Origin: Oscillospiraceae bacterium
GTDB lineage: Bacteria > Bacillota > Clostridia > Oscillospirales > Oscillospiraceae
Length of the DNA: 36,860 nt
Direction: 5' to 3'
NCBI GenBank assembly: GCA_015067935.1
Contig: SVLL01000014.1
Coordinates: 1 to 36,860 of the forward strand
Positions within the stretch are counted from its first letter, which is position 1. Each line of letters starts with the position of its first letter. Shown here one piece after another: positions 17,681 to 35,618 of this stretch. The notes beneath the pieces are model-generated. The model searched no databases and was not told the DNA's origin. It was given only the letters and a program-made list of their open reading frames with translations. Both the position numbers and the translations under genes were made by a program.

Positions 17681-18373
17681 TCAACCGTATTCCTTCAGGC
17701 AGGCCAGCATTTCCTTGCTTGTGAGCTTGCCGTTTCCTTGCTGTGCCAGCATTTCCCATTTTTGGAAAATGCCGGGAAATGCGCAAATGGGCACCTTCCG
17801 ATTCCCCACCAACGTCAGCCGCACCGCAAAAGGCAGTCTGCGGTTTCCGGAAAGTTGCTTTACAAGGGCACTGCGCAATTTGCGGTCCGCCTCTTGGGTT
17901 TCCACGATCCGGCATTGGTAGATCTTATCTTTCTGCAGCCGATCCATCAACGGCTTCAGCAATTCCGGCGTGCGGTCCAAGGCCATTGCCACAGCACCGC
18001 CCCTTTCCAGCAGGATGCGCAAAAGCCGCGCCATTTCCTCCTGCGTCGCCTCTCTTCCCCCGGCAAACTGCATATTGTCAACGATCAGCAGGTCACATTC
18101 CGGCGGAGTGATCACATAATTGCCTTCTCTGTACCAGCGCAGGACATATTCTTCCGCGAAGGCTTCAAAGGTAGTCATCAGCACCTTCTTTTCCGGATAT
18201 TTCTCCTGAAACCTATGACACAGTGCAGAGAGCAGCAGGGTTTTTCCGGAGGACGAGGGGCCCCAAAGCACAATACATTGCCCGGCATAATCCTCGGCAA
18301 AGGACATACACGCCTCGTAAGCCGGCCGAAAAGAGGGGCTGACGATCATATTTTCCACATTCCTGTTTTCCAT
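17681..18373 (-). CDS. DnaA/Hda-like AAA+ ATPase
   Basis: A 230-residue P-loop ATPase that looks like domain III of DnaA without the DNA-binding domain IV. Walker A GPSSSGKT is at 38-45 and Walker B LLIVDNMQF at about 95-103; the DnaA-like patterns VLMTTFEAFAEEYV and RTPELLKPLMDRLQ (sensor region) are present. The start at 18373 has a GGAGGGG site. It is the last gene of the third transcription unit of the island. By analogy with Hda or DnaC it may load or remodel another ATPase or a replication factor, but no function is known. No terminator is visible after it; the remnant at 17634 follows. Confidence 0.75.
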   Translation of the reverse strand: MENRNVENMIVSPSFRPAYEACMSFAEDYAGQCIVLWGPSSSGKTLLLSALCHRFQEKYPEKKVLMTTFEAFAEEYVLRWYREGNYVITPPECDLLIVDNMQFAGGREATQEEMARLLRILLERGGAVAMALDRTPELLKPLMDRLQKDKIYQCRIVETQEADRKLRSALVKQLSGNRRLPFAVRLTLVGNRKVPICAFPGIFQKWEMLAQQGNGKLTSKEMLACLKEYG

Positions 18374-18396
18374 CCGTTCCCCTCCTCCGTTTTTCT

Positions 18397-21048
18397 TTAA
18401 TTTCTTACCTTTTCCTTTGTCTTTGCGCAGCTTTCCCGGGGCGCATACCACCGCTCCTGAACGGCGAATTTACCTGCCGCATTGCTGTCCTTCTTGACCT
18501 TAACAAAGTCCTTTTCCAAAAGGCTGCACACCGCGTCAAAGGGCACAAGATAGGCATCGCCCTCCGCCGTTCTGCATTGGAAGGCATCCTCAAAGAGCCT
18601 GTGATGGCAATACCGCTCTGGTTTTTCCACCTTCGCCGCCGTCAATTCCTGCAGCAGCGTGGCTTCAAAGCGGAAATTGCTCAGCTCCCGTTCATAGTAG
18701 TCATAGACCTTGTAATCCGTCGCGTCCGCGTCAATCCGTTCACGCTTGGTAAGGGTAACCACATCCAGATAGTCCGTGGTAACCCCCTCCTGCGTAAGAT
18801 AGCTTTCGCCCTTTTCCAGACGGGGCATTCTCGCCTCCACCAGACAGGAATGGAGCTTCAGCCGCATATTCTTGTGATCCTTGCGGCCCTTATCCGGCTC
18901 CAGCATATCCTTCACATCCACTTGCTGATAGCCCATCGTACGGGTAAAGGCATTCCACCGACGGTGCTCCAACCATGCAAGACATTCCCGTTTCTTCTCC
19001 AGTTCCCGATATGCCTGCAGTTCCTCGTCGGCAAGCCCCAGACGGGTCTGTATTTCCTCGCAGGTAGCCTTTTTGTAATTATATTTCGCCACCGCAAACC
19101 GGCGGTACTGGGTCAGCATTTCCCGAACATTCTGCAGATAGACTTCGTATTCCGCCTCCGTAGTGCAATCAAACACAGAGGTTTTAAGCCAGCCCAGCGA
19201 GAAAAGTCTGTATTTCATGTGCATGGCCCGCGCCAGAGATGCCCAATAATCATAGTTATCGTTTTCGTACTTCTCCAGCTCACCGCTGGCTCTGGTCAGA
19301 TTTTCCAGGCGGTGGGAATTTACGAATTGGTCATAGGAAGGTGCACTGCCGGTTTCTGTTTTCCACAGCAAATTCTTGGACATATACACATTTGCACAGC
19401 TGTACACCTGATCCATATTGCCAAATGCGTGCATATAGATATCCGGCTTGCCGGAACGCAGACTTACAAAATGCTTCTCCTGATTGAGATTCTTCGTCAG
19501 CTCCGCGTCAAAGACCGCATATGCGATCACTACCTGACCCGGCTCTTTGTGGGCATGCTGCGCAATGTGCCGCTTGCCGATGAGCCCGCGCAGCTTTTCC
19601 GCGACGGTGATATTGTCGGAATCGCTGCCCAGCGCAACGATATAGTAATCCGAATCCAGCAGCCAATCGGCGTGCTCCTCCTCGCTGCCCCAAAGACCGC
19701 CGGTTTTCAGGTCCAGTGTGGTGTAGCGCACCGTACAGTAGGGCGCATTGGTCTCCCCTGCCTCACTGACCTTCAGCAGTTCCTCAGGCAGGATGCATTT
19801 TTCATCGCTTAGCACCGCAACGGTTCTGCGGATCTCCGGGTTTACATAGTCGATCTGAGACCAGAAGGCCTTCTCCGTATCCTTGGATACCACATTGATC
19901 TTCAGCCGGCAGGGACGCATTGTCTCCTGCTCACCCTCACCGCTGCAAACCATCATTTGTCCCATCCAGTAGGCACCGAGAAACGCCTCTGTGCCGATAA
20001 TGCCGTTGCCGAGGATGGTTACCTTCAGGTCATCACGCTCCGGACGGCCCACCAAGGGCTCATAAAGGGGCACCGTATTCAGCAGATTCTGCACCAGATT
20101 CCGATAGCCCCGCACCGGTACGATCACAGGCTTTTTGCCCCCGTCCAGCAACTCCTTTTTCTTCTCCAGCAGAGCCTTTGCCTGCCTTTCGATCTGAATG
20201 TAGGCATCGGTCTGCACGAACAGGTAAATGCTGGAATCCTTCACATACTTCAGGTTTTGGTCCTCTATCAGGCTCAGCAGTGTCTGCAGATTGCCGAACT
20301 CGTTTTCATCCATCAGATAGAACTCCCGGGGACTTTTTACAGGCTTTGGCACATGGGCCAAGTCCTTGCGGACGCAAATCGCCCCGTAACGCTTGGCTTC
20401 CTGAAAAAGCTCGGTTTCTTTTTCCTGCTCGTCATCAATGTAGGCGTCCGTAAACACCAGCACCGGCCGCTCGGAGCTTCTCTCCCGGCTGATGCTCTTG
20501 GCAAGTGCCAAGGACGCCGGATTCAGCTCGCTGAAATAGTATTTCTTCCGCCGGGTGTTGCAGAATGACCACCGCAGATGCAGCTCCGGAAAGAATCTGG
20601 CCAGCACCACCAAGACGACCGTGCCTCCGGCAACGGGCGCGACCACATTCAGAATGGAGGCATAGGCTCCGTAAATGCCCTGCCAGATCGCATTCCCGCC
20701 AAAGCCCTTGGCGATCATTTCCTTACCGCTGCGGATGTACTGGGTATAATCCTCATCCATACTGAAGGTCTGCAGTGCGTGTACAAAGCTATTGAGAAGC
20801 TCTTCTCCAAAATACAGCGGCTTTTCGCATTTTGCCGGGAACAGAATGGCATAATACCCCACAGCAAATCGCAGACACCAAACAGAAAACAGGAGACAGC
20901 CGGAAAAGACCAGTGTCCGGCTGGCTCTCAGCTTTCTTTCGGGCGTCTTGTTGCGGTTGTGAAGATAGAGCCACAAGGGTACAAACCATATAGCCACTGA
21001 CAAAAACAGCAGGCAGCCAATGATTCCCTTATCGCACCAGTGCAACAT
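18397..21048 (-). CDS. Membrane Rossmann (TrkA/RCK-like) protein with RyR domain, copy 2
   Basis: An 883-residue protein. Three membrane segments (about 8-29, 44-70, 122-150) are followed by a first Rossmann-like region (YYFSELNPASLALAKSI, then VLVFTDAY), a second with VTILGNGIIG (about 343-352), and a RyR domain near 693-740 that opens LEHRRWNAFTRTMGY. About 140 further residues follow. The layout resembles K+-channel gating (TrkA_N/RCK) domains that bind NAD or nucleotides, fused to the ryanodine-receptor repeat seen in bacterial conflict proteins. It is a paralogue of the protein at 24561-26348, but with a longer linker and C-terminus. It lies 26 bases after the AAA-protease gene. I infer a membrane sensor of a nucleotide ligand. 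Confidence 0.72.
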   Translation of the reverse strand: MLHWCDKGIIGCLLFLSVAIWFVPLWLYLHNRNKTPERKLRASRTLVFSGCLLFSVWCLRFAVGYYAILFPAKCEKPLYFGEELLNSFVHALQTFSMDEDYTQYIRSGKEMIAKGFGGNAIWQGIYGAYASILNVVAPVAGGTVVLVVLARFFPELHLRWSFCNTRRKKYYFSELNPASLALAKSISRERSSERPVLVFTDAYIDDEQEKETELFQEAKRYGAICVRKDLAHVPKPVKSPREFYLMDENEFGNLQTLLSLIEDQNLKYVKDSSIYLFVQTDAYIQIERQAKALLEKKKELLDGGKKPVIVPVRGYRNLVQNLLNTVPLYEPLVGRPERDDLKVTILGNGIIGTEAFLGAYWMGQMMVCSGEGEQETMRPCRLKINVVSKDTEKAFWSQIDYVNPEIRRTVAVLSDEKCILPEELLKVSEAGETNAPYCTVRYTTLDLKTGGLWGSEEEHADWLLDSDYYIVALGSDSDNITVAEKLRGLIGKRHIAQHAHKEPGQVVIAYAVFDAELTKNLNQEKHFVSLRSGKPDIYMHAFGNMDQVYSCANVYMSKNLLWKTETGSAPSYDQFVNSHRLENLTRASGELEKYENDNYDYWASLARAMHMKYRLFSLGWLKTSVFDCTTEAEYEVYLQNVREMLTQYRRFAVAKYNYKKATCEEIQTRLGLADEELQAYRELEKKRECLAWLEHRRWNAFTRTMGYQQVDVKDMLEPDKGRKDHKNMRLKLHSCLVEARMPRLEKGESYLTQEGVTTDYLDVVTLTKRERIDADATDYKVYDYYERELSNFRFEATLLQELTAAKVEKPERYCHHRLFEDAFQCRTAEGDAYLVPFDAVCSLLEKDFVKVKKDSNAAGKFAVQERWYAPRESCAKTKEKVRN

Positions 21049-21074
21049 ATTTTCCCTTCTCTCTGTCAGAAAAA

Positions 21075-24000
21075 TCAGTCAGCCTTTTTGATCCGGGAGG
21101 CTTCCCGGGGCAGGGCCAATGCCTGCTCGATCTGTTCGCCGGTCAGATGGTTCTTGGACATCAATTCGTCCACCAGTGCATCCATCTGCGCCTTGTTTTC
21201 GGCAATCAGCTGTACCGCCAATGCCATCTGCTCGCTCAAAATCCGGTTGACCGCTGCGCGGACCTCCACAGACATTACACCGCCTGCCGCCGTCATACCG
21301 CTGACCACCGCCAGACCGAAATTCTCATCCATACCGTAGCTGCAAACAAGGCTCTGGGCGATGCTTGTTGCCGAGGCCAGATCGCCGCTTGCACCGGTGG
21401 AAATGCCGTCCTGCGCGCCATAGTAGACGATTTCTGCAGCTCTGCCGCCCAAGCTGGTGCGAATGCGGGCCAGCAGCTCATCCTTGGTATAGATGGCCTT
21501 TCCCTCCTGCTCCGCGTGCTGCATATAGCCACCGTGGTTGCCCCGGGCAACGATGGTCAGGTAGGAAGGTGTCTCGCCGCTGAGCCAGCATAGGAAAGCG
21601 TGACCGGCCTCGTGCCGGGCAACACGCTCCAGCTGTGAGATATCCCATTTCTTCACTTCGCCGCCGTTGAAGGTCTCGAAGGCCTCCTCCAGAATGGCAT
21701 CGGTAACCTTGGTGCTGCCCTCCCGAATGGCAGAGCGCAGAGCCAGCTCAAATACGGAATCCAACTCCGCCAGACTCATACCGGTGGCACGCATTGCCAC
21801 ATTCTCCACCTGCTTTTCGGAAATTTCGAAGGCAGGATTCTTTCCGATTTTCCGCTTCATAAACCGGATACGGGCATCCTTGTCCGGGCGATCGATAAAT
21901 ACCCGGCGGTCAAAGCGGCGCATCAGAGCCGGATCAAGGCTCTTGTCCGTACCGGGCTCCACCTTGAAATTGGTAGCTGCCAGCACAAATACGGGCTTGG
22001 TGGGATCGCTGGCAAAGCCGTCCATCTCCGCCAAAAATGCGGTCAGCGTGGCTTCTGTGCCGCTGCTCTCCTCGCCGCCCTTTCTCTCCTTGGCGATGGC
22101 ATCGATCTCATCGATAAAGAGGATGGCAGGGGCATATTTCCGGGCGGTCTTGAACAGCTCGTGAACCTTTTCAGAGCCTTCGCCCACATATTTCTTCAGG
22201 AACTGGTTGCCCTCAGCGGCGATAAAGGTCACACCTGCCTCGCAGGCCATTGCCTTGGCGAGCATAGTCTTGCCGGTGCCGGGAGGTCCGTAAAGGATCA
22301 CGCCCTTGGGGGCCTTCACACCTGTTCCGATGTACTTCTTGGGATTTTTCAGATATTCCACAAAATAGGCCAACTCTTTCTTTGCTTCCTCTGCACCGAT
22401 CACATCCGTAAAGCGCACATTGGGCTTGGAAAGGGCACTGAGAATATTTTTGGAATCCTCAGCATCCACAGCCACAGCCATCCGGAAGTCAAAGAGTCTG
22501 ATTTGCGCCACCTTGCCGTTTTTGGAGATCATCTGGGCAGTCTCGAAGGACACCAGCTTGTTCTCCTTAGCCAGCTTGACCATATTGGCCTGCTGATACA
22601 GCCGATCTGCCACAGCGGCCATCTCCTTGGCGAAGGTGTCCTTGCCCTTGGCGACCCGGACAATGCCCCGAACGCCCTGCCGCAGGAAGGAAACCTTTTC
22701 CTCCTCGCTCAGGGGGGCGGACTTTCCCTCCAGCAGATACAGCGGCAAATCATTATGCTGCCGCAGACGCATAAAGAAATCCCGGGCAGGAGATTGGACA
22801 TCCTCCAGGTTCAGGTTGTCCAGCGATGCTGCCTGCGCACCGCATTTCATATCCAGCAGAATAAAATCGATATTCCTGCTCTGCAAAATGCCGATGGCTT
22901 CCTCGGTATCCTGCACGCCCAGCAGGTCCATATCGGACACCTTGCTCTGGCACAGCTGTACCGTTTCAGGGGCAGCAAATACCAATACCTGCGGTCTGCC
23001 GGAGGCGGCAAACAGCTGCCGGATCTCCGGCTTTGCGCCGTCCAGATCCACGCTGATGCGGATCTCCTCCAGCGCGTCGATATTCGTCTTGACCTTTGAG
23101 GAGCTGATCAGCCGCAGCAGCTCATACAGCTCATCGTTGAAAAAGCTCTCCGCTCTTGCCCGGATGGTACGGGCATCCGCTGCGCTGCCCTCTGCCAGCA
23201 GCAGGGCGGTATAGATCCGCTCATCCATACGCACCTTCAGCCCCGTTGTGGTTCCCAACGCATTGGCGTGGCGTTCCACCTCTCTCTGGGCGATGGTGCG
23301 CAGATTGTGGGCATCCATATGGTTGAACATTACCACATTACCGGTAGCCAGACGGGAGCAGATAGCTGCCGGGAAGAAGGGCTGTCCGCTATGGACATCC
23401 ACATCCTTCTCCAAAGCCTTGATGATGACCTTCCGGGAGTAGCCGGACAGATCGTCCGTCTCGCTCTCATTATAGAGCTGACGGCCGGCATTGGTGGTAA
23501 GGATCACGATGGTATCGGTGAAGGAGATTTCCTGGCCGAGGAACGCATCCCGTACCCGGCCGGCATCCAGCAGCTGCAGGAACAGATGGATCACCCGGGG
23601 ATGGGCCTTTTCGATCTCATCAAACAGCAGCACACATTCGGGATTTTTCGACACGAAGCCGGTCACTTCACCGGCGTGAGAGCCCTTAAAGGCATTGTCA
23701 AAGCCGGCAAAGGTCATGTGGGAATCATCGTCGGCATACTCGCTCATATCAAAGCGCATAAAGGGCTTCTGCAGGCTTGCGGCGATTCTTTCCGCAAGGA
23801 AAGTCTTGCCCACGCCGGGAGGACCGGCAAACAAAAAGATTGCCTTGGGACGCTTCCGGCTCTTGTCGGTCATAGCCAGCAGGTTGGCCTGAAAATAGCC
23901 GGTGGTGAACACATTGATGGCGTTGTCCTGACCGAAAACGGCACTTTTCAGCTCGGCGCGGATCTGCTTTACCTCTGCCACCAGCTTGCCGATCTCGGAC

Positions 24001-24539
24001 TTCGGGTCAGCCTTCTCCACCTCGGGCTCTGTCTGGTCCATCAGTGCCTCCAGAAAGAAGTCCATATCGATATGGATTTCTTCCTGCTCCGCCGGTTCTT
24101 CCTCGGCTTTCTGCTCAGGTTCTTCTTCCTTGTTCGGTGCGGGATACAAGAAAAGCTCCTTCAGCATCTCGCTGGGCTCATCCACCAGAGCCACCATCAC
24201 GCAGATGGCATCCACTTCCTCCAGCTCGTGCTCTGCCGCATAGCTCTGGGCTACCCGAAGTCTTTTTTTCATATACAGATCGTCCAGAAAAGACGCAGGA
24301 TTATCCCGGCATATATAAGCCATCAGTTTTTCACGGCCACCCTCTATGTCCGGCAATCTGCCCTTGAGGACATCCCGCAGGACCATATATTCCACGCAAC
24401 GCTTACCGCCTGCTTGGATCAAATCGATGACCGCCACAACAAACCGCTCTGCGGTAAAGGGTGCGCTAAGCTTGTTGTCCACCTTTTTGGCACTTTCGAT
24501 CAATTCCAGTAAAAGCTCGCTGTATTTCAGTTCTGCCAT
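21075..24539 (-). CDS. ClpB-type AAA+ / receiver-like / FtsH-type AAA+-M41 protease fusion
   Basis: An 1154-residue protein with an unusual order. Residues about 1-150 are helical and recall a Clp N-domain; 133-155 is very acidic. A ClpA/ClpB-type AAA+ follows (Walker A GPPGVGKT about 239-246, Walker B VLLFDEIEKAH about 303-313). Residues about 517-630 look like a receiver (REC-like) domain, with FILLDMK at the phospho-Asp position. Then comes an FtsH AAA+ (GPPGTGKT about 751-758, ILFIDEID about 806-813, RRFDRRVF) and an M41 zinc protease with HEAGH (about 976-980) and a further ligand in GASGDLASAT. FtsH is normally membrane-anchored; this protein has no membrane segment. Its neighbours on both sides are membrane RyR proteins, which could recruit it. 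Confidence 0.85.
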   Translation of the reverse strand: MAELKYSELLLELIESAKKVDNKLSAPFTAERFVVAVIDLIQAGGKRCVEYMVLRDVLKGRLPDIEGGREKLMAYICRDNPASFLDDLYMKKRLRVAQSYAAEHELEEVDAICVMVALVDEPSEMLKELFLYPAPNKEEEPEQKAEEEPAEQEEIHIDMDFFLEALMDQTEPEVEKADPKSEIGKLVAEVKQIRAELKSAVFGQDNAINVFTTGYFQANLLAMTDKSRKRPKAIFLFAGPPGVGKTFLAERIAASLQKPFMRFDMSEYADDDSHMTFAGFDNAFKGSHAGEVTGFVSKNPECVLLFDEIEKAHPRVIHLFLQLLDAGRVRDAFLGQEISFTDTIVILTTNAGRQLYNESETDDLSGYSRKVIIKALEKDVDVHSGQPFFPAAICSRLATGNVVMFNHMDAHNLRTIAQREVERHANALGTTTGLKVRMDERIYTALLLAEGSAADARTIRARAESFFNDELYELLRLISSSKVKTNIDALEEIRISVDLDGAKPEIRQLFAASGRPQVLVFAAPETVQLCQSKVSDMDLLGVQDTEEAIGILQSRNIDFILLDMKCGAQAASLDNLNLEDVQSPARDFFMRLRQHNDLPLYLLEGKSAPLSEEEKVSFLRQGVRGIVRVAKGKDTFAKEMAAVADRLYQQANMVKLAKENKLVSFETAQMISKNGKVAQIRLFDFRMAVAVDAEDSKNILSALSKPNVRFTDVIGAEEAKKELAYFVEYLKNPKKYIGTGVKAPKGVILYGPPGTGKTMLAKAMACEAGVTFIAAEGNQFLKKYVGEGSEKVHELFKTARKYAPAILFIDEIDAIAKERKGGEESSGTEATLTAFLAEMDGFASDPTKPVFVLAATNFKVEPGTDKSLDPALMRRFDRRVFIDRPDKDARIRFMKRKIGKNPAFEISEKQVENVAMRATGMSLAELDSVFELALRSAIREGSTKVTDAILEEAFETFNGGEVKKWDISQLERVARHEAGHAFLCWLSGETPSYLTIVARGNHGGYMQHAEQEGKAIYTKDELLARIRTSLGGRAAEIVYYGAQDGISTGASGDLASATSIAQSLVCSYGMDENFGLAVVSGMTAAGGVMSVEVRAAVNRILSEQMALAVQLIAENKAQMDALVDELMSKNHLTGEQIEQALALPREASRIKKAD

Positions 24540-24560
24540 ATCTCTTTCTCCTTCTGTGTA

Positions 24561-26387: not shown

Positions 26388-26416
26388 ATTATACTATCCA
26401 CGGCGGATGCCGTCAA
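26388..26416 (-). promoter_or_regulatory. Near-consensus SigA promoter of the RyR-AAA-RyR-DnaA-like unit
   Basis: TTGACG (26416-26411) and TATAAT (26393-26388) on the minus strand are separated by exactly 17 bases. Transcription would begin near 26381, 33 bases before the RyR gene. This makes the last four island genes a separate, probably strongly expressed unit. Confidence 0.85.
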
Positions 26417-26430
26417 TGATTATTTCGAAA

Positions 26431-26462
26431 AGCACAACCCCGAAGAGCGAGCTCTCCGGGGT
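26431..26462 (-). terminator. Probable terminator after the CARF nuclease gene
   Basis: On the minus strand a stem of about 11 base pairs (ACCCCGGAGAGC with GCTCTTCGGGGT, one mismatch) lies just after the CARF nuclease stop and is followed by a T-rich but interrupted tail. It sits between the second and third transcription units. Confidence 0.65.
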
Positions 26463-27732: not shown

Positions 27733-27750
27733 ATTTCCCCCGTATGCGTC

Positions 27751-27780
27751 TTAAGCCCCGAGGGAAACCTCGGGGCTTAA
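27751..27780. repeat. Intercistronic 13-bp perfect hairpin before the CARF nuclease
   Basis: TTAAGCCCCGAGG and CCTCGGGGCTTAA pair perfectly around a four-base loop, between the YbjN-like gene and the nuclease ribosome binding site. There is no T-tract on the minus strand, so it is more likely an RNA-stability or translation-tuning element that lowers or separates nuclease expression from the upstream genes. Confidence 0.6.
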
Positions 27781-27789
27781 AGCAAGCAT

Positions 27790-28263
27790 TTAATCCATAT
27801 TGATAAAATTCTCGATGGAGATCATACCCTTTTCCAGCGCGAGGAAACGGTCATTGTACTTATCCACCATAGCGCAGGAGCAGGAGATCATATACTGCAG
27901 AACGCCTTCGCTGATCTGGCTGCCTCTGTAGCTGGCCACCAGCCGGAATGCAATGCCGCCGGTGCTGATGTCATAATCAAAGCTGCCGTCAGCCATACCG
28001 AAGGAAGCGGAGCAGGCGGCGATTGCGCCCTCCATACGCTTATTTTCGCTCATCTTGAAGGGGAAGGGGGACAACACGGTAACCAGCTCTTTTTGCGGCT
28101 CCACGAGCACTGCCATCTGCAGAGGGATGTCGTCGCCGTTGACCACAAAACGCACTGCCATATCTTCTTCAACCTTTTCGTATGTCCAGTTTCTGTTGTC
28201 CACAGCAGTACACAGCAATTCATAGACCTGCTGTGCCCGGGCCATTTTCATTTCGTCAGCCAT
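27790..28263 (-). CDS. YbjN-like protein, copy 1
   Basis: A 157-residue acidic cytoplasmic protein of the YbjN/type III-secretion-chaperone-like fold. The pattern of alternating strands and helices (NRNWTYEKVEEDMAVRFVVNGDDIPLQMAVLVEP, then YDISTGGIAFRLV) is typical, and the C-terminal helix includes DKYNDRFLALEKGMISIENF. It is a paralogue of its neighbour at 28280-28759, which is 16 bases upstream. Such proteins bind partner peptides; here the partners may be the sigma factor or the sensors. GGAGG precedes the ATG. Confidence 0.75.
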   Translation of the reverse strand: MADEMKMARAQQVYELLCTAVDNRNWTYEKVEEDMAVRFVVNGDDIPLQMAVLVEPQKELVTVLSPFPFKMSENKRMEGAIAACSASFGMADGSFDYDISTGGIAFRLVASYRGSQISEGVLQYMISCSCAMVDKYNDRFLALEKGMISIENFINMD

Positions 28264-28279
28264 CGTAACATCCTCCTTC

Positions 28280-28759
28280 TCAATGATTCAGCGCATCCAG
28301 AAACTGTCCGATGGTAATCATACCCTTGCCCAGCATCAGGAATTTGTCGTTGTATTCATCCACAGTATTGCAGGTAGCCATCAGCATATAGAAGAACAAT
28401 TCTTCACCGATCTGACTTTCAATAAAGTTGTTGGTCATCCGGTAGAAAAGATGGCCGGTGCTCAGATCGAAATCGAAGCAGCCGTGAGCCAGCATATTAT
28501 TGATAACGCTCACAGCCACAGCCGTATCCAGCCGCTTGTCCTCCGGGATCACACCGGGCAGATGGGAGAAAACCATAATCAGCATTCTCTCTGCATCGAT
28601 CGCCAGCGTCAGATCGATGGGCAGGTCATCGCCCCGCGCACCGCACTTCAGCCTCAGCTTTTCATCGTCTCTTGCATAGTGCCATCCGTTATTGTCCAAA
28701 GTCCGGCACATAGTTTCAAAGGTAGCCTTCGCCAGATTCATATCCTGCCAATCAGCCAT
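28280..28759 (-). CDS. YbjN-like protein, copy 2
   Basis: A 159-residue paralogue of the preceding entry. Both share the order W(T/H)Y, a GDD(I/L)P strand, FD(Y/F)D(I/L)STG, and a C-terminal VD(K/E)YNDKFL...GMI(S/T)I. The pair probably arose by tandem duplication and may form a heterodimeric chaperone. It follows the anti-sigma-like gene by 35 bases and lies in the same unit. Confidence 0.75.
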   Translation of the reverse strand: MADWQDMNLAKATFETMCRTLDNNGWHYARDDEKLRLKCGARGDDLPIDLTLAIDAERMLIMVFSHLPGVIPEDKRLDTAVAVSVINNMLAHGCFDFDLSTGHLFYRMTNNFIESQIGEELFFYMLMATCNTVDEYNDKFLMLGKGMITIGQFLDALNH

Positions 28760-28794
28760 AGTAATCTCTCCAATCTGTTATTATTCAAAAGCAA

Positions 28795-29094
28795 TTATGC
28801 GTAGCCGTCATACTCATCCTGCTGTGTGGGTTTTTCCGACGCCACCAGCGGAAGGTCCGCATTTTTCGCATTGTTGGCACTACGCACTTTGTTGATAACG
28901 AACTTTCTGAAATCGTCGCTTCCATGTAGTCTGGCAAACTCGTCGTGGATCATCTGAAATGCCTGCACATATCTGAGACATTGGTCACAATCACGAATAT
29001 GCTCATTCACGGTAGCGGAAAGCATCAACGCGTCAGCGTCCAGCTTAGTCAATGAAACGAAATCAATCATTTCATCAACAGTTAGATGCTTCAT
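28795..29094 (-). CDS. Zinc-finger anti-sigma-like protein
   Basis: A 99-residue protein with an HxxxCxxC motif (His32, Cys36, Cys39: NEHIRDCDQCL) inside a short helical domain, the signature of zf-HC2/ZAS anti-sigma factors. It has no membrane segment, so it would be a soluble, possibly redox-sensitive inhibitor. The start at 29094 has GGGAGGGG upstream and overlaps the sigma gene end by 20 bases, the usual coupling of sigma and anti-sigma pairs. A longer version reading back into the sigma gene is unlikely. Confidence 0.7.
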   Translation of the reverse strand: MKHLTVDEMIDFVSLTKLDADALMLSATVNEHIRDCDQCLRYVQAFQMIHDEFARLHGSDDFRKFVINKVRSANNAKNADLPLVASEKPTQQDEYDGYA

Positions 29095-30022
29095 CTCCGC
29101 CCCTCCCTTTCTTGCCCCCGTCATCCTCCGGAGTTTTTTCATCCCCGGGTTTTTCCGGGGATTGTTCATCCTTTTCAGACATGGGATCAGGTTCCTCTTC
29201 GCCCATTTCGCGGCGGACAATATCGTTCATCCGATTCATCCAGTCGCTGATGGACTTTTTGCCGGAAACCTCTCCCTTGTTCTTCATGAAGAACGCTTTG
29301 TATTGCGTTTCACCATATGTAACGCCGTCGCGCCGCTTTTTTCGCAAAGCGGTGCGGATTTTTGCATCCTGCGTCTGGGTAATCACCAGCCACGGGATGC
29401 TGACAGAGGCATCCAACAGCATATTGTACATCTCATCCAGAGTCTTGTTTTCAAAGGCCGCCAGAATCAATTTGTTGGATTCGATCTTGGTAGCGTCATT
29501 GTCAAACATAAACAGACAATGGGCCAGCCAAGTCAGAACCTTGTAGATATTCACGCTGGAGGAAAGCACGATGTTGAACGCCTGCATAAGCTTTTCCACT
29601 CGTTCGGCATTCTGGTCATCGTCGCCGTTGTTCCGATCGGGCAGATTCTCCACCAGGGGGTCCTCCATATCTGCCGTCTTGAAATCGATTTTCCGCACAT
29701 TGTTGGCGAAATCCTTCTTCAGGTTTTCTGCCACGCGGAACAGCCAGTCCTCAAAGCCCTCGGGGTCATTGTTGTAGGGACCGCTCACGCCGCTGCGGCG
29801 CAGGAAATAGGGAATGGTCGTCTTGATCAGACGCACATGAATTTCCTGCATAATGTCATCTTCATATCCTCTTCCCTTGAGGGTCTCGTCGCTGCTACAC
29901 CAATTCTTCACCGTGCTGCGCAGGGTCTTTTCCGCGATCTGCGCCAACATTTCGTAAGAAATGGGCTTCTGGTCCAGCATCTGGCTGGCCATGGTTTCAA
30001 ACTCTTCTCTTGTAAAACGCAT
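29075..30022 (-). CDS. Sigma-70-family factor, divergent
   Basis: A 315-residue protein. The N-terminal part resembles region 2 of sigma-70 factors (YEDDIMQEIHVRLIKTTIPYF, then FEDWLFRVAENLKKDF), while the C-terminal part does not show a clear region 4 and ends in a highly charged low-complexity tail (about residues 270-315). I start it at 30022 (MRFTREEF); an ATG at 30034 is also possible. It is first in the second transcription unit, with the anti-sigma-like gene overlapping its end. A lost or degenerate region 4 would leave promoter recognition unclear, so it could also be a sigma-derived regulator. Confidence 0.68.
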   Translation of the reverse strand: MRFTREEFETMASQMLDQKPISYEMLAQIAEKTLRSTVKNWCSSDETLKGRGYEDDIMQEIHVRLIKTTIPYFLRRSGVSGPYNNDPEGFEDWLFRVAENLKKDFANNVRKIDFKTADMEDPLVENLPDRNNGDDDQNAERVEKLMQAFNIVLSSSVNIYKVLTWLAHCLFMFDNDATKIESNKLILAAFENKTLDEMYNMLLDASVSIPWLVITQTQDAKIRTALRKKRRDGVTYGETQYKAFFMKNKGEVSGKKSISDWMNRMNDIVRREMGEEEPDPMSEKDEQSPEKPGDEKTPEDDGGKKGRGGDEASNC

Positions 30023-30081
30023 CTCAACCACCATCCTTCTTCGGACTTGCGTTTTCTTCTTACACACTCACGAACAAATCT

Positions 30082-30110
30082 ACTATAGCATATCAAACGG
30101 GGGAAATCAA
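30082..30110 (-). promoter_or_regulatory. SigA-type promoter of the sigma-led unit
   Basis: TTGATT (30110-30105) and TATAGT (30087-30082) on the minus strand are 17 bases apart, giving a start near 30075 and a leader of about 50 bases. It begins a transcript running through the anti-sigma-like, two YbjN-like and CARF nuclease genes. Confidence 0.75.
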
Positions 30111-30233
30111 GGAATCAAAGGGTGTAAAATGTCAAATATTCAGACTTTTTTGGGGTATTTGGCCAAAACCTCCAAGAATTCGACCGCAATACAAGAATTT
30201 TTGTCTGTCATTTGAAAACACTCCACACGCGCG

Positions 30234-30268
30234 TCAAACACGCACCCATATAAAGAGCGCGTGTTTGA
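30234..30268. repeat. Inverted repeat upstream of the sigma promoter
   Basis: TCAAACACGC (30234-30243) and GCGTGTTTGA (30259-30268) form a perfect 10-base inverted repeat with a 15-base AT-rich spacer. It lies about 125 bases upstream of the -35 box of the sigma unit. It could be an operator or a factor-independent RNA hairpin; no T-tract follows. The remainder of 30111-30233 shows nothing I can assign. Confidence 0.5.
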
Positions 30269-30304
30269 ACTTATCGGGGGGAATTTGCAATTGATCATCG
30301 GCAT

Positions 30305-30331
30305 CGCCTTGTGGGGGACAATCACAAGGCG
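30305..30331. repeat. Hairpin overlapping the stop codon of the NADAR gene
   Basis: CGCCTTGTG and CACAAGGCG pair perfectly (9 bases) across a 9-base loop, at the very 3' end of the NADAR gene. It lacks a T-tract. Together with the inverted repeat at 30234-30268 it may form the 3' end of the first transcription unit. Confidence 0.45.
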
Positions 30332-30957
30332 CACAGCTGCGCGAATGTGACCGGTCCGCTCAGTACACCTGCTCTGGTCATGCCCACAAAAACAGCCGCG
30401 GTGCGGGCCTGACAGTTCAAGGATACCTTCGGATTGAACTCGATGTCCGTAAAGGCATCGTATTCCAAAATCTGCGCTGCCACCTCAGGATTCTCCTGCA
30501 GGGCAGATATGTACAGCCAGTCATAAAACGCATTCGTCGGCCGGAGCGGATAGGATTCTCCTTCAAAGAAGAAACCCGTCAGCGCACCGGAGCTCTGCAG
30601 CCGTCGGTCCAGCTTTGCCTCCTTGGGGGTCACCGTAAGCAAGTCCTGATAGGGACCGCCGCCGGAAAAGCACTTGCCTGCCTGATACACATTCTCCACG
30701 GTCAACTGCTGATCAAGTGAAGGGACATACTTTCTCAGATAAAAGGCACTCAGGCTGACGCCGAGAGGTACCGTCGATTTACTGGATGCCTCCAGAATCC
30801 GCATCCCGGGACATTGGGCGGCAAAGGCCTTATGAATCTCCGCCACATTCCGTCTTTTCTGGGTTGCGTTTAAGGCTCCGTGCCAAGGGAATTCCACATT
30901 CACTTGTTTGAAATACGGTGCTTCGCTGATTGCCGTGAAAACAGGTCTCACTGCCAT
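30322..30957 (-). CDS. NADAR-family protein (DarT1-associated antitoxin-like)
   Basis: A 211-residue protein recognised as the NADAR type found as antitoxin beside DarT1 toxins (MAVRPVF...; ASSKSTVPLGVSLSAFYL; YPLRPTNAFYDWLYI; EYDAFTDIEFNPKVSLNCQARTAAVFV). Such NADAR proteins remove ADP-ribose from nucleic acid bases, chiefly guanosine. No DarT or other ADP-ribosyltransferase gene is in the window, so it is an orphan here. The start at 30957 has GGAGGGG; upstream is a 146-base AT-rich gap, so it could have a separate promoter. It is the last gene before the sigma unit. Confidence 0.8.
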   Translation of the reverse strand: MAVRPVFTAISEAPYFKQVNVEFPWHGALNATQKRRNVAEIHKAFAAQCPGMRILEASSKSTVPLGVSLSAFYLRKYVPSLDQQLTVENVYQAGKCFSGGGPYQDLLTVTPKEAKLDRRLQSSGALTGFFFEGESYPLRPTNAFYDWLYISALQENPEVAAQILEYDAFTDIEFNPKVSLNCQARTAAVFVGMTRAGVLSGPVTFAQLCAL

Positions 30958-31103
30958 AAAAACCCCTCCATTCTTCCTGTCTAATACAGAAAACGGAAAA
31001 AATATCGTTTTTTTCGCAGGATTTCCCAAAAATTTTTAAAAATATTTATTTTTCTTTTCGTTCAAGAATGTAATACCCCGTCGAAAGGCGCAAATGATAA
31101 GTC

Positions 31104-31664: not shown

Positions 31665-31675
31665 ACTGCACCTCC

Positions 31676-33361
31676 TTAAAAATCAAACAGGCTTGCTACG
31701 CTCTGCTTGTCAGCAGTGCGCTTTTTATGTACATAGGTATACTTGGCATCGGAAAAACGCAGCTTCGGCTGCCGTGCATCGGGATCGGCCTGATCGTCAG
31801 AAAACTCGGGGCAGGTATAGCTGCGCTCGATTCTGGACCAGAGCACATCCTCCCGCATTTGGGTGACGATACACTCACCCGGGTTCAGCTTGGTGAGCAT
31901 ACTCACGGGCACCAACGCCACCGTATCCTTTTCAAATCGTTCAATGGCTTCACCGGAGCCATTCAGGGCCGATGTGGGCGCGATGATGGTCTTGCGGCCG
32001 CACTCTTCAGAGAATTCCCGCTTGGTTTCCGGATTGTTGGTACCGAAAAACACATGGGTGTTCAGGTTGTCCTTGATGATCTCCGCGGTCTCCTTGCCGT
32101 AGATGTTGTACAGCTGGGCATAGGACTGTAAAATCAGCAGGAACCAGATGTTTCTGCCTGCGCAGGCGGAGATGACCTTGTCGAAATCGTTGAATTTGGG
32201 AAGATTGCCGAACTCATCCAGCAGGAAGTAGAAGGGCCGCTGCAGCCTTGTTCCCTTCTTACGGGACACACCGATCAGCTCGGTGTAAAGGTTGCTCAGG
32301 AACATGCTGATGACCTCATAGTGCAGGCTTTCCTCGTCCTTGTAGGAAAGGAAGATCACCGTAGGCGCACCGTCATCCAGCTGGCTGATCTCAAAGGTAT
32401 TGGCGCAGGTGATACGCCGCACCGCGGTATCGCGGAACTTATTCATCTTGGTAATAAAGGAGGAGGAAATACACCGTCGGGTGGTCTTTGCCTGCTCGAT
32501 GATGCACTTGTGGGCCAGCTGATGGGCCCGGGAAGTGGCCAGCGGACGGCTGGTGAAATAGCCCTTGTCGTAGTCATTCTCGTTGGCGTCGGTGAAGGTA
32601 TCGAAGATCCGCATCACCGTATCAAAGGAGAAATTATCCTCGGTAACGATACCCGTTTCGCTGTCTTCCAGCATACCGTAGAGCACCGCCATCAGCAGGT
32701 CACGGGCAGAATCCTCCCAGAAGGGGTCCTTGGTGTTCTGGGTGGGGATGATCGCACCGGCCAGAGCGGTAATGCCCTTCTCCACCTCGTCAACATATCC
32801 CTCGCGCACCTCTGCGATGGCCAGATCCAGCTCCTCCTGATTCTCATAGATAATGCCCTGAAATTCGTTTCTGGAGCCGTGCTCGGTCTGTACCACCTTC
32901 ACGGAGGCTCCCACATTCAGATATTTCTGATAGGCCCGATAATACTTGGTCAGGGGATTCCAGCAATCGCTGTGCATATAGTTGGTGAAATCCAGCATCA
33001 GAACCCGATAGCCCTTGTCCGCAAACTTTTGGGCATTGCTCCGATACAGCTCCTGCTTGGGGTCGCTGATGACCAAGCTGGGCTTATTCTTCTTGTTCAG
33101 CAGCACATTCAATGTGGGGATCACATAGCCCGTAGTCTTACCGCTTCGGGTGGCACCGATGGCCAGCAAATGGGTGTCCTCAATGAAGGTCACCTGCAGC
33201 TGTCCATCTGCGTCCCGGCGGACGCAGATGGGGATACCGTCAATATTCTGTTCGGAAAGTGCGCTGTAGGACACCGTTCTTTCCTTGTTCTGACGGGCAT
33301 ATTCCTCTGCCGTAGTCAGCTTGGCATTTTCATAATCCTTAAAAAGCTCAATATTGTTCAT
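31676..33361 (-). CDS. Soluble VirD4/TraG-type coupling ATPase
   Basis: A 561-residue ATPase of the type IV coupling-protein family. Walker A GATRSGKT is at 69-76, preceded by LLAIG; the Walker B-like LVISDPKQELY and the family motifs LDFTNYMHSDCWNPL, FYFLLDEFGNLPKF and ILQSYAQLYNIYG are all present. Unlike conjugative VirD4/TraG, it lacks the N-terminal membrane segments. No relaxase or type IV secretion gene is nearby, so it probably works as a DNA pump or substrate adaptor inside the cell. Its start overlaps the preceding gene by 14 bases. Confidence 0.85.
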   Translation of the reverse strand: MNNIELFKDYENAKLTTAEEYARQNKERTVSYSALSEQNIDGIPICVRRDADGQLQVTFIEDTHLLAIGATRSGKTTGYVIPTLNVLLNKKNKPSLVISDPKQELYRSNAQKFADKGYRVLMLDFTNYMHSDCWNPLTKYYRAYQKYLNVGASVKVVQTEHGSRNEFQGIIYENQEELDLAIAEVREGYVDEVEKGITALAGAIIPTQNTKDPFWEDSARDLLMAVLYGMLEDSETGIVTEDNFSFDTVMRIFDTFTDANENDYDKGYFTSRPLATSRAHQLAHKCIIEQAKTTRRCISSSFITKMNKFRDTAVRRITCANTFEISQLDDGAPTVIFLSYKDEESLHYEVISMFLSNLYTELIGVSRKKGTRLQRPFYFLLDEFGNLPKFNDFDKVISACAGRNIWFLLILQSYAQLYNIYGKETAEIIKDNLNTHVFFGTNNPETKREFSEECGRKTIIAPTSALNGSGEAIERFEKDTVALVPVSMLTKLNPGECIVTQMREDVLWSRIERSYTCPEFSDDQADPDARQPKLRFSDAKYTYVHKKRTADKQSVASLFDF

Positions 33362-35009
33362 TCCCTACTCCTCCCATATAACCAAAGCCCCGTCTGGTGC
33401 CGGGAATGTTCTGCTGACCGGAGATGGTCTTCAGTGTCTCGGCAGTGACAACAGAATCGTTTTCGTATGCTGCCTTCTTCAGCGCGCCGTCGATGATGCG
33501 CATAATCTGCTCGGTCTTGAAGCCTGCCAGATATGCCTTGCCGGCATCCTCCAGCTCCGCCCGACCCACGCCGAAGCAGCGAGCCCGCTCGCGGAAGGTG
33601 GCATCGATCACTGTCTGCTTTTCTTCCTCGCTGATACGGGCGGTCCAAACCACATCACACTCCCGTGCCAATGTGCGAACCGTCTCGTTGGTCTCGGAGG
33701 CAAACAGCACAATGAGCACATCGGACAAATCCAGACAGACCGTCGGCTCCAGCAGCTTAAACTTGCAGCGATATTCATAATCCAGCAGCTTGATGAGCTC
33801 CTCCAGCTCCCGCTCACCCAGCTCCTCGCAATCCTTCACCAGAAATACCGTGTGGGACTGCTTGGTTTCAGACAGTCCGCGGAGCAGGAAATTCTCCTTG
33901 GCACCCACGAAGTCTTCCATTCCCAGCGTGCCTGCATCCACCTCGATGACCTTGTTGCCGTCGGCAAAGCCGGCCTTCAGGGCGTCCACATACATATCCG
34001 CCACATAGGCATCGTCACCGGCCACCAGCAGAGTCTGGTAGAGGCTCAGGCGGTTATTGGTGGCAGGCGACAAGCTGCACAGCAGCTTGTCCAGCTCCGC
34101 CTCGCGACGCAGGGGCAGGTTCTGTGCCAGCTTCCGATCAAAGGAGAACTGCTTTTCTCGGGTGGCATCAAAGGGCAGGTCGGACAGTGCATCAATCGCT
34201 CCCTGCTTCTTGTTCAGCAGCAGCTTTTCCTTGTCCTCTGCGGACAGCAGGGTGGAAAAAGCCACCTTGGCGAAGATGCGGTCGTAAGTATTGCGCTGGA
34301 TGATTCCCAAGCCGAAAGCCTTCTCGATGATCTTCGCAACAGAGCTTTTGGTGCAGGGCTTGTCATAGCCCGTTGCGGCGCAGATGTACTTAAACACTTC
34401 CCGCTGATTGGAGCTGCGCAGGATGGTGTAGAGGGTGTTGTAATATGCGTCCTGATTCTCCGGGTCATAGGCGATGCCCATCAGGTTGCCGAACAGATTG
34501 TTCCACTTAGCGCAAAGGCTCAGTCGGCGGACAGCATTTTCCTCGTCCCGGCAAATGCAAATACCGTGATATTCCATATAGGAAAGGGTAGCCATTGCAT
34601 CCACATTGCCGTTCATAGCCGTATTCAAAAGGGTGTCGGCGATCAGCTCTGCGGTCAGGTTCTTGCTCTGCTTGAACAGCTCCTGCTTAATGAGCATTGC
34701 TTCCCGCTTCTGGGACAGCACCACCCGATCCGCGGCTGTCATCTGAACATTCTGACCGCTGCTCTCGGCAAATTCAATGGTGCGGCACAGCCGCTCATAG
34801 GCGGCATAATCGGTAATGGTCTTGTACTGCTCGGCATTCGCCAAAGCATAGTATTGCTCGGCTTCCCCGTCCATAGGAACGCAGAAAACCCTCGCCAGCT
34901 CCTGAAAGAGCGTCCGCTGCTGCGCTTCGTCTATAAAGCCGCGGCAGACGGCATCGATCAGAAAAAACTGGGTCAGCAAGGGCTCCATCAGATAGTTGGT
35001 ACTCTTCAT
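33348..35009 (-). CDS. Sel1-like / degenerate AAA+ protein
   Basis: A 553-residue protein that I do not recognise as a named family. A region near residues 130-200 looks like a Sel1/TPR-type helical repeat (DAMATLSYMEYHGICICRDEENAV). From about 330 to 500 the pattern of an AAA+ domain appears, but the Walker A position reads LLVAGDDAYVADM, with no GxxGxGKT; the Walker B and sensor positions (VFLVKDCEEL, VLIVLFAS) are also altered. Located 12 bases after clpP, it could be a non-hydrolysing adaptor or substrate selector for that protease. GTG at 35018 is an alternative start; ATG at 35009 has AGGAG upstream. Confidence 0.65.
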   Translation of the reverse strand: MKSTNYLMEPLLTQFFLIDAVCRGFIDEAQQRTLFQELARVFCVPMDGEAEQYYALANAEQYKTITDYAAYERLCRTIEFAESSGQNVQMTAADRVVLSQKREAMLIKQELFKQSKNLTAELIADTLLNTAMNGNVDAMATLSYMEYHGICICRDEENAVRRLSLCAKWNNLFGNLMGIAYDPENQDAYYNTLYTILRSSNQREVFKYICAATGYDKPCTKSSVAKIIEKAFGLGIIQRNTYDRIFAKVAFSTLLSAEDKEKLLLNKKQGAIDALSDLPFDATREKQFSFDRKLAQNLPLRREAELDKLLCSLSPATNNRLSLYQTLLVAGDDAYVADMYVDALKAGFADGNKVIEVDAGTLGMEDFVGAKENFLLRGLSETKQSHTVFLVKDCEELGERELEELIKLLDYEYRCKFKLLEPTVCLDLSDVLIVLFASETNETVRTLARECDVVWTARISEEEKQTVIDATFRERARCFGVGRAELEDAGKAYLAGFKTEQIMRIIDGALKKAAYENDSVVTAETLKTISGQQNIPGTRRGFGYMGGVGNEQY

Positions 35010-35021
35010 TCCAATCACTCC

Positions 35022-35618
35022 TTATCTCCATGCTTTGATGGTGTCGGGCACAAGGACATGGTCGACCAGACCGTAGCTCTGCGCCTCTTCGGCTGTCATG
35101 GTGTAGTCACGATCCGTATCCTTGGCAATTTGCTGCACCGTCTTGCCGGTATTTCTGGCCAAGATGGTATTCAGCGTTTTTCTGGTATGTTCAATATGCT
35201 TGGCAGCGATGATAATATCGGATGCCTGACCCTGCGCACCACCCAGAGGCTGGTGGATCAGAATCTCGCTGTTGGGCAATGCCAGACGCATCCCCTTGCT
35301 GCCGGAAGAGAGCAAAAATGCGCCCATAGACGCCGCCAAGCCGACGCAAATAGTACGCACCTTACAATCGAGCATATTGATGGTATCGTAGATCGCCAGG
35401 CCGTCGGTAACAGAGCCGCCGGGGCTATTGATCAGCAGTGTGAGGATCCGCTCCTCTTCGGGCAGATTCTCGTCAATCATCTTTTGCTCAATGTAGTGCA
35501 TCTGGGGGATGACCCGGGCCGCCATACCCGTGTCCACAGGTCCAAACAGATAAATCTGATTCTTGCGAAGCAAATACTGATCGGACAACATCTCAATTTG
35601 GGAATTTTCTCTTGCCAT
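35022..35618 (-). CDS. clpP: ClpP-family serine protease
   Basis: A 198-residue ClpP, the self-compartmentalised peptidase that works with AAA+ unfoldases. The complete catalytic triad is present: Ser97 in GLAASMGA, His122 in IHQPLGG and Asp171 in TDRDYTM. The N-terminus is longer than processed ClpP. It is the first gene of the island, with a terminator upstream; no obvious SigA -35 box lies before it. The nearest AAA+ partner in the same transcript is degenerate; candidates for a working unfoldase are the ClpB-type module at 21075 or a chromosomal ClpX/ClpC. A duplicate of the housekeeping clpP is likely. Confidence 0.92.
   Translation of the reverse strand: MARENSQIEMLSDQYLLRKNQIYLFGPVDTGMAARVIPQMHYIEQKMIDENLPEEERILTLLINSPGGSVTDGLAIYDTINMLDCKVRTICVGLAASMGAFLLSSGSKGMRLALPNSEILIHQPLGGAQGQASDIIIAAKHIEHTRKTLNTILARNTGKTVQQIAKDTDRDYTMTAEEAQSYGLVDHVLVPDTIKAWR

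What the first reader, a model, noticed from the sequence alone, without database searches (positions are those of the whole stretch)
17681..35618. Candidate undescribed 14-gene system joining proteolysis, CARF nuclease, RyR sensors, NADAR and sigma control
All 14 genes are on one strand, with most gaps under 60 bases, several overlaps and three internal promoters. Seen directly: ClpP, a P-loop-less AAA+ relative, a VirD4-like ATPase without membrane part, a winged helix, NADAR, a sigma/anti-sigma-like pair, two YbjN paralogues, a CARF nuclease, two RyR membrane proteins, a ClpB-REC-FtsH fusion and a DnaA-like ATPase. Known: CARF, RyR/TrkA_N and NADAR domains recur in nucleotide- or NAD-centred conflict and stress systems. 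Inferred: membrane or nucleotide sensing leads to nuclease and protease action, with the sigma pair adjusting expression. I know of no named system with this composition.
Basis: partly seen in the sequence, partly recalled or inferred. Interest (0 to 1): 0.93.

Follow-up and report, generated by a model that had tools for sequence, protein, structure and literature searches.

The report
Modular RyR-sensor, nuclease and protease locus
This stretch of a clostridial genome carries gene modules that recur together, reshuffled, in related bacteria: membrane proteins with a ryanodine-receptor domain, a CARF nuclease, sigma-control-like genes and protein-degrading machines, which likely sense an NAD-derived alarm molecule and would then attack the infected cell's own contents as an immune response.

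Summary
The observation mostly holds: 14 same-strand genes at 17681-35618, nearly the composition described. NADAR and the DnaA-like ATPase were found in no other locus examined. The other twelve recur in Clostridia as shuffled modules: ClpP/Lon-like pseudo-ATPase/soluble VirD4/winged helix; sigma/anti-sigma/two small paralogues/CARF nuclease; RyR1/AAA-FtsH fusion/RyR2. No other locus has more than 7 of 13 scored families: a modular hub, not a fixed 14-gene system. Association beats chance: without the window's genome, 10 of 11 fusion-protease genomes also have an RyR protein (0.8 expected, p=6e-12), and single polypeptides join kinase, RyR and CARF-nuclease parts. RyR1 is membrane helices, a tandem RCK unit like TrkA/CASTOR, and an RyR domain (64 of 71 family members match PF02026 at E up to 0.1) with the four residues by which phage RyDEP binds cyclic ADP-ribose. 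TIR genes, makers of such signals, lie near RyR1 in 29 of 93 loci versus 1 of 23 hub loci without RyR1 and 0 of 20 random loci. Best reading: an ADP-ribose-type signal receptor hub with exchangeable outputs; the mechanism is inferred. New variant of nucleotide-signalled conflict systems.

The parts
35022..35618 (-). ClpP peptidase, module A gene 1; Ser, His and Asp of the triad in place (positions recalled)
   Evidence: PF00574 6.8e-65; family alignment
33348..35018 (-). Lon-like AAA pseudo-ATPase, module A gene 2; Walker A lost; C-terminal FGYxGG in 6 of 7 members
   Evidence: Walker A absent in 7 of 7; collinear with the AAA domain of Lon
31676..33361 (-). soluble VirD4-like ATPase, module A gene 3; GATRSGKT and LLDEF present, no hydrophobic segment
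31104..31664 (-). winged-helix-like protein, module A gene 4
   Evidence: weak HTH_45 0.012, under cut-off; 5 loci, window included
30322..30957 (-). NADAR (DarT1-associated type), probably accessory: in no other locus examined, flanked by longer gaps (146 and about 285 bases)
   Evidence: PF22397 7.7e-76; none elsewhere
29075..30067 (-). ECF-sigma-like protein (likely start 30034 or 30022), module B gene 1
   Evidence: TIGR02937 0.0011, under cut-off; Sigma70_r2 in 3 of 9 members; SigL/SigW weak
28795..29094 (-). anti-sigma-like zinc protein (HxxxCxxC), module B gene 2
   Evidence: motif in 10 of 10 aligned
28280..28759 (-). small paralogue 1 (159 aa), unknown family, module B
27790..28263 (-). 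small paralogue 2 (157 aa), module B
   Evidence: 7 contig lengths over 5 kb shared with RyR1 relatives
26473..27732 (-). CARF PD-(D/E)xK nuclease (Can2/Card1 type), module B; NExD and SCK invariant in 23 of 23 aligned
26437..26462 (-). terminator-like hairpin between CARF and RyR1
26388..26416 (-). promoter-like site before RyR1 (11 of 12 consensus)
30082..30110 (-). promoter-like site before the sigma gene (9 of 12, extended -10)
24561..26348 (-). RyR1: about four hydrophobic N-terminal segments, tandem RCK (TrkA/CASTOR-like), C-terminal RyR domain; module C gene 1
21075..24539 (-). fusion protease: Cdc48/ClpB-type AAA, middle region of unknown family (REC not confirmed), AAA, FtsH M41 peptidase; no hydrophobic segment; module C gene 2
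   Evidence: Walker A/B and HEAGH present in 14 of 14 fusions, window included
18397..21048 (-). RyR2: hydrophobic N-terminus, RCK-like region, RyR domain without the Asp aligned to RyDEP D117; module C gene 3
17681..18373 (-). DnaA-like ATPase, accessory: in no other locus examined
   Evidence: PF00308 2.2e-18; none elsewhere
35727..35758 (-). strong terminator-like hairpin (14 pairs, T run) after the upstream DUF436 gene; 5' border

Best explanation
The locus is a modular conflict system, likely anti-phage, whose hub is a membrane RyR-RCK protein predicted to bind an ADP-ribose-type nucleotide alarm signal and which would pass that signal to exchangeable outputs: a CARF nuclease and AAA/ClpP proteases, likely under sigma/anti-sigma control. 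Shown here: the domains, intact active-site motifs in the fusion protease, nuclease and ClpP, the recurrence of three modules (A: ClpP, Lon-like pseudo-ATPase, VirD4-like, winged helix; B: sigma, anti-sigma, two small paralogues, CARF; C: RyR1, fusion protease, RyR2), their genome-level association, kinase, RyR and CARF-nuclease regions in one polypeptide, and TIR genes next to RyR1 in relatives. Inferred: infection or NAD stress raises an ADP-ribose-type signal (from TIR proteins, which this genome encodes on other contigs); RyR1 binds it through H542, W545, H572 and D589 and its RCK ring changes state at the membrane; RyR2, which lacks the Asp, would bind without cleaving; proteases free the sigma factor from its anti-sigma, amplifying the modules; the CARF nuclease and proteases then halt the cell. 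NADAR is likely an accessory that trims ADP-ribose marks or damage.
Against: No function was tested. No TIR gene is in the window's locus. 49 of 84 RyR1 genes have none of the scored partners adjacent, some because contigs end. No other locus holds more than 7 of 13 families. Some parts occur outside the hub: sigma in L202 and L203; fusion-like proteases in L200, L206, L207, L208 with no other scored family; CARF in a type III-B row; ClpP-VirD4 in L196. RyR with the pseudo-ATPase is weak (2 of 3, p 0.015). The TIR profile was seeded from RyR1 loci, the random controls were not matched for defence genes, and p-values ignore ancestry. A crude catalytic-Glu pattern matched only 14 of 34 TIR ORFs. 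RyR1 was not found in viral contigs or plasmids, and in one of 50,697 phage records. In the full-length model the RyR part has low confidence. L012 lacks the simple NExD...CK pattern; L170 and L073 VirD4 relatives lack a Walker A pattern.
Confidence: 0.42

Rival explanations
1. Defence-island neighbourhood: several independent systems (a CARF effector, a Thoeris-like RyR unit, a ClpP/VirD4 unit, a sigma regulon, NADAR) simply accumulate side by side.
For: NADAR and DnaA-like gene only here; CARF next to Cmr2 in L155; VirD4-ClpP pair alone in random locus L196; partner swapping on the RyR1 tree, 15 changes with 5 the minimum.
Against: Ordered modules with overlapping genes, strong pairwise co-occurrence, and kinase-RyR-CARF fusion proteins are more than shared neighbourhood.
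Confidence: 0.27
2. A stress or homeostasis regulon: RyR-RCK proteins monitor adenine nucleotides or ions at the membrane, and proteases plus the sigma factor run protein quality control; not immunity.
For: RCK proteins of known structure (TrkA, KtrA, Kef, GsuK) belong to ion transport; proteases and sigma/anti-sigma fit envelope stress; NAPRTase (NAD salvage) near RyR1 in L037.
Against: Patchy distribution (any match in 5 of 37 genomes of the genus, 3 of them over nearly the whole protein), TIR, kinase and CARF-nuclease partners, partner swapping.
Confidence: 0.2
3. Transcription is the main output: the locus is a sigma regulon in which RyR-triggered proteolysis of the zinc anti-sigma switches on genes elsewhere; the nuclease is an accessory.
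For: The sigma/anti-sigma unit occurs with proteases or small paralogues and without CARF in the fetched stretch (L167, L204, L205, L227) and almost alone in L202.
Against: CARF catalytic residues are invariant in 23 of 23 aligned relatives; the sigma match is weak.
Confidence: 0.11

Closest known systems
Thoeris (TIR-made ADP-ribose signals with a separate effector)
   Same: RyR1 relatives are in part encoded beside TIR genes; the RyR domain is of the family whose phage members bind 2'/3'cADPR (PMC13232231: abstract, sections 4, 5, reference list and passages seen)
   Different: no TIR in the window locus, no SIR2-SLOG effector; RyR-RCK membrane protein, proteases and sigma-like control
RyDEP, phage RyR-domain cADPR glycosidase/sponge
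   Same: same domain family and the four ligand residues in RyR1
   Different: host-encoded, joined to membrane and RCK parts; H75-H100 distance 25 there, 30 here; activity untested; RyR2 lacks the Asp
Type III CRISPR CARF nucleases Can2/Card1
   Same: CARF plus PD-(D/E)xK, Can2 7bdv 5.3e-12
   Different: Cmr2 model finds nothing at E 0.001 in 17 of 19 CARF genomes, Csm1 model none of 19 over its cut-off, 8 weak; partnered with RyR, sigma and proteases
TrkA/KtrA and CASTOR/DMI1 RCK gating rings
   Different: extra RyR domain; pore sequence not examined
MADS and other multi-gene defence systems in PADLOC
   Same: similarity of VirD4 and DnaA-like genes to mad8, probably general P-loop similarity
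   Different: no methyltransferase match among the 14 genes
FtsH protease
   Same: AAA plus M41 with HEAGH
   Different: no hydrophobic segment; extra Cdc48-type AAA

Membership tests
RyR domain (PF02026) | profile match | tested here: met
   64 of 71 members at E up to 0.1, best 2.4e-7; window copy E=0.013, 16.1 bits, cut-off 27.4; PDB RyR chimera 1.5e-11
RyR domain (PF02026) | fold | tested here: met
RyDEP-type cADPR binder | ligand residues H, W, H, D | tested here: met
   RyR1: H542, W545, H572, D589; RyR2 lacks the Asp
RyDEP-type cADPR binder | binding or cleavage of 2'/3'cADPR | not testable with these tools
   needs protein
Thoeris | TIR protein in the locus | tested here: not met
   no TIR match among the 14 genes; TIR genes on other contigs and beside RyR1 in relatives
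Thoeris | SIR2-SLOG or macro effector in the locus | tested here: not met
   no such match in the 14 genes
RCK/TrkA family | tandem RCK fold | tested here: met
RCK-gated ion channel | conducting pore and selectivity | not tested
   hydrophobic regions only
Can2/Card1 CARF nuclease | CARF plus PD-(D/E)xK motif | tested here: met
Type III CRISPR effector | Cas10 in the genome | tested here: inconclusive
   G000: no Cmr2 match; one Csm1 match far under cut-off (19.5 bits of 170); genome 79% complete
ECF sigma factor | Sigma70 region 2 match | tested here: inconclusive
   3 of 9 members, best 6.6e-4, window copy not; TIGR02937 18.7 bits, cut-off 42.9
ZAS anti-sigma | HxxxCxxC | tested here: met
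   10 of 10 aligned; motif meaning recalled
DarT1-NADAR toxin-antitoxin | DarT1 partner next to NADAR | tested here: not met
   flanking genes 31104 and 29075 show no DarT match
YbjN | profile match | tested here: inconclusive
   no Pfam family at E 0.1; NCBIfam only a weak glycosylase match, 0.0067, for one paralogue; none of 120 listed relatives has a Pfam label
Lon protease | Walker A and Ser-Lys protease domain | tested here: not met
   AAA region collinear with Lon (Lon_lid 5.9e-22 in the matched stretch of L113), Walker A absent in 7 of 7, no protease part
FtsH | N-terminal membrane helices | tested here: not met
   no hydrophobic segment; M41 and HEAGH present
Receiver (REC) domain in the fusion | Response_reg profile match | tested here: inconclusive
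   no match in residues 500-700 at E 1; an Asp is kept in 14 of 14

The most novel reading that the evidence does not exclude
[quoted passage not shown] They form the hub of a large family of clostridial immune systems that swap TIR signal makers, CARF nucleases, sigma factors and protease machines, including a ClpP run by a Lon-like pseudo-ATPase and a soluble VirD4 motor, around one receptor.
Probability: 0.27. Interest if true: 0.93.

Novelty: new variant of a known kind. Interest (0 to 1): 0.74.

Why it matters
[quoted passage not shown] Here host proteins carry the same four residues on a membrane-anchored RCK unit, in part beside TIR genes, so a cellular receptor for such signals is proposed with a direct binding test. 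The locus also links machines not seen together in the sources searched: a CARF nuclease without a detected Cas10, a soluble AAA-FtsH fusion protease, a ClpP unit with a Walker-less Lon-like partner and a VirD4 motor, and a sigma/anti-sigma-like pair. If true, it would make the cADPR-ryanodine receptor question testable in bacteria.

Tried and rejected
Fixed 14-gene system: rejected, no second locus with more than 7 of 13 scored families (many contigs are short). ClpC origin of the 556-aa protein: first assumed because reverse hits were about 800-aa AAA proteins; alignment and Lon_lid match show Lon. A REC domain in the fusion: no Pfam support. 'FUS' hits of 603 aa in L159, L160 and L161 I take as housekeeping FtsH; they stand in the table (so L159 has 6, not 7, real families). 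The 36 weak genomes (residues 366-531 only) were dropped as Lon; 4 of 40 remained. The 23 RyR genomes include weak and RyR2-type matches; 14 have a nearly full-length RyR1. Redundancy: L021/L168, L024/L089, L059/L163, L010/L090 and L042/L091 are the same contigs; L089-L091 were left out of counts, but L021/L168 and L059/L163 both stand in the 93 loci. The gene picks let antisense ORFs replace real genes (RyR1 in L034) and were replaced. NADAR and the DnaA-like gene were looked for in fetched loci, not genome-wide.

YbjN identity, mobile-element borders and an empty insertion site: nothing found. DUF436 relatives in the genus (10 of 40 other genomes) showed no other window gene near them, except that G332 has sigma/anti-sigma/two small paralogues beside DUF436. 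Rfam: no match. Viral contigs: 24 pattern matches, none a relative; plasmids: none. The PDB profile search with the small paralogues gave only E 0.07 or worse. The TIR catalytic-Glu pattern (14 of 34) was too crude to use. DNA repeats: nothing informative.

Literature: ten searches, of which I saw listings. PMC13232231: abstract, sections 4 and 5, part of the reference list, passages. PMC7159879: outline with abstract and one find. PMC6697748 (CASTOR): search listing only. Burroughs et al. 2015 and 2020 on conflict systems (recalled) and Yirmiya et al. 2025 on TIR systems (seen as a reference) were not held and may describe RyR/TrkA_N conflict proteins, so novelty of the RyR-TIR pairing is not certain.


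Full report
What is there. The window is a whole contig of an unnamed draft genome (G000, 79% complete). Fourteen minus-strand genes fill 17681-35618. A 14-pair terminator-like hairpin at 35758-35727 separates them from the upstream DUF436 gene, and a hairpin at 26462-26437 followed by an 11-of-12 promoter-like site at 26416-26388 splits RyR1 from CARF; another promoter-like site precedes the sigma gene. These borders coincide with the modules below, although the overall number of promoter-like sites (23 against 15.7 +/- 4.1) is only a little above chance.

The ligand clue. In phage RyDEP, H75, W78, H100 and D117 hold 3'cADPR, with H75 and D117 catalytic (PMC13232231, sections 4 and 5). RyR1 has H542-x-x-W545, H572 and D589, with the same spacing inside each pair (between the pairs 25 residues in RyDEP, 30 here). 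H and W positions are kept in 103 of 104 aligned RyR proteins (one gap) and D589 in 93 of 104 (8 gaps, 2 N, 1 E); 8 of the 11 exceptions are RyR2-type. That paper reports six of eight tested phage relatives binding these signals and only the founding member cleaving them, so binding by RyR1 is a fair prediction, not a result. In its main text no word begins with TrkA or membrane.

TIR neighbours. A TIR profile seeded from four TIR genes of these loci finds TIR in 29 of 93 RyR1 loci (31 genes, 1,579 kb), in 1 of 23 fetched loci without RyR1, and in 0 of 20 random 20-kb loci of the same order. Thirteen lie within 153 bp on the RyR1 strand; one more, in L201, was seen later. On a FastTree of 84 RyR1 proteins the TIR-adjacent label needs 7 changes and the protease-adjacent label 5 (15 for all labels, 5 the minimum), so partners have been swapped; 49 of the 84 have none of the scored partners adjacent. 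The window has no TIR, but its genome has 8 TIR_2 matches elsewhere.

Modules. Iterated profiles of the window proteins were run over the loci found with RyR1 (80 named loci) and over regions around hits of the CARF, pseudo-ATPase, sigma and fusion-protease searches (results). Module A (ClpP, Lon-like pseudo-ATPase, VirD4-like; winged helix in 5 loci) stands in order in 7 of 7 loci with the pseudo-ATPase. Modules B and C recur in part: L034 is A plus sigma/anti-sigma plus RyR1; L049 is A without winged helix, sigma/anti-sigma, an AAA protein, CARF, RyR1; L014 is both small paralogues, CARF, RyR1, fusion protease, RyR2; L150 is sigma, anti-sigma, CARF, fusion protease; L031 is RyR1, fusion protease, a TIR-TPR protein, then ClpP, pseudo-ATPase and VirD4 up to the contig end. 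No locus but the window has more than 7 of 13 families, and NADAR and the DnaA-like gene were seen only here.

Chance. In one set of 295 genomes of the order, searches found RyR in 23 (14 nearly full-length RyR1), fusion protease in 12 (E up to 1e-120), sigma in 9, CARF in 37 and the true pseudo-ATPase in 4. Leaving the window's genome out, the fusion protease and RyR share 10 of 11 genomes (0.82 expected, p 6e-12), sigma and RyR 6 of 8 (p 2e-6), CARF and RyR 12 of 22 (p 5e-7), CARF and sigma 6 of 8 (p 5e-5), CARF and fusion protease 6 of 11 (p 7e-4), fusion and sigma 3 of 8 (p 0.002), and 3 of 3 pseudo-ATPase genomes have sigma (p 1.3e-5) and CARF (p 0.0017), 2 of 3 the fusion (p 0.004); the weakest pair is RyR with the pseudo-ATPase, 2 of 3 (p 0.015). 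Ancestry was not corrected, and many of the genes lie on different contigs of these drafts. In the protein database the 120 listed RyR1 and small-paralogue relatives share 7 contig lengths above 5 kb against 0.08 in shifted controls (max 2); RyR1 and the pseudo-ATPase share 1 (control 0.15, max 2) and the small paralogues and pseudo-ATPase 2 (control 0.12, max 1).

Fusions. L012 encodes 1503 aa with a kinase domain (1.6e-19), an RyR motif and a CARF-nuclease-like end (PADLOC 4.5e-10; the simple NExD...CK pattern is not found), followed by a phosphoesterase, RyR1, the fusion protease and a small paralogue. L170 encodes 1412 aa with Pkinase (1.5e-13), an RyR motif and Card1_endonuc (7.8e-6), one gene away from a ClpP-VirD4 pair and with TIR genes on both sides on the other strand. 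These are the strongest functional links between the RyR, CARF, ClpP/VirD4 and TIR parts.

Outputs. The CARF protein is of the Can2/Card1 kind, with NExD and SCK invariant in 23 of 23. It has probably been taken from type III CRISPR: in G306 a relative follows a gene row with a Cmr2-type Cas10 (PF22335 5.9e-27), but the Cmr2 model finds nothing at E 0.001 in 17 of 19 CARF genomes, the window's included; with the Csm1 model 8 of 19 gave weak matches and none passed the cut-off. The fusion protease keeps both Walker pairs and HEAGH in 14 of 14 and has no hydrophobic segment: a soluble FtsH relative with a second AAA domain in the chain. The 556-aa protein is collinear with the Lon AAA domain but has lost Walker A in 7 of 7. 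Of 9 VirD4 relatives, 7 show a Walker A pattern, the window's among them.

How it would work (inferred). Signal maker (TIR or other NAD enzyme) to RyR1/RyR2 at the membrane, to the CARF nuclease and proteases, with the sigma factor freed when the zinc anti-sigma is degraded. Each arrow is untested. The rivals are a mere defence-island neighbourhood, a homeostatic stress regulon, and a transcription-led regulon.

Standing. It may work like a nucleotide-signalled conflict system but fails two defining features of Thoeris as a locus (no TIR, no described effector), so it is not filed as Thoeris. I rate it a new variant of a known kind, with the reservation that the 2015, 2020 and 2025 papers most likely to mention RyR/TrkA_N proteins could not be read.

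Noticed in passing
L196:2911-5766 (random control locus of a congener): A 266-aa gene, a VirD4-like ATPase and ClpP stand together with no RyR or CARF match, so the ClpP-VirD4 pairing exists on its own too.
   Followed up: partly
L046:1-9880: A 1958-aa protein (weak transglutaminase match) with 602- and 736-aa proteins lies upstream of RyR1; its cluster occurs in 14 loci and beside RyR1 in 8 of 84; no PADLOC match.
   Followed up: partly
L227:9500-16288 (G332): Sigma, anti-sigma and both small paralogues stand beside DUF436 in a congener, with a phage-type integrase (PF00589 7.4e-25) two genes away.
   Followed up: partly
L155:856-8227 (G306): A CARF relative ends an apparent type III-B gene row with a Cmr2-type Cas10.
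   Followed up: partly
window 12695-13868: A SIR2 protein and an ASCH-domain protein overlap, 3.8 kb downstream of the locus.
   Followed up: no
window 27733-27792: A 9-bp GC-rich hairpin lies just upstream of the CARF start (sequence); possible attenuator.
   Followed up: no
MT835673.1:16788-18449: A record labelled Bacteriophage sp. encodes an RyR1 relative (45% identity over 93%); it may be a bacterial contig.
   Followed up: no
L037:10263-11471: A nicotinate phosphoribosyltransferase (NAD salvage) lies between RyR proteins and the sigma gene.
   Followed up: no
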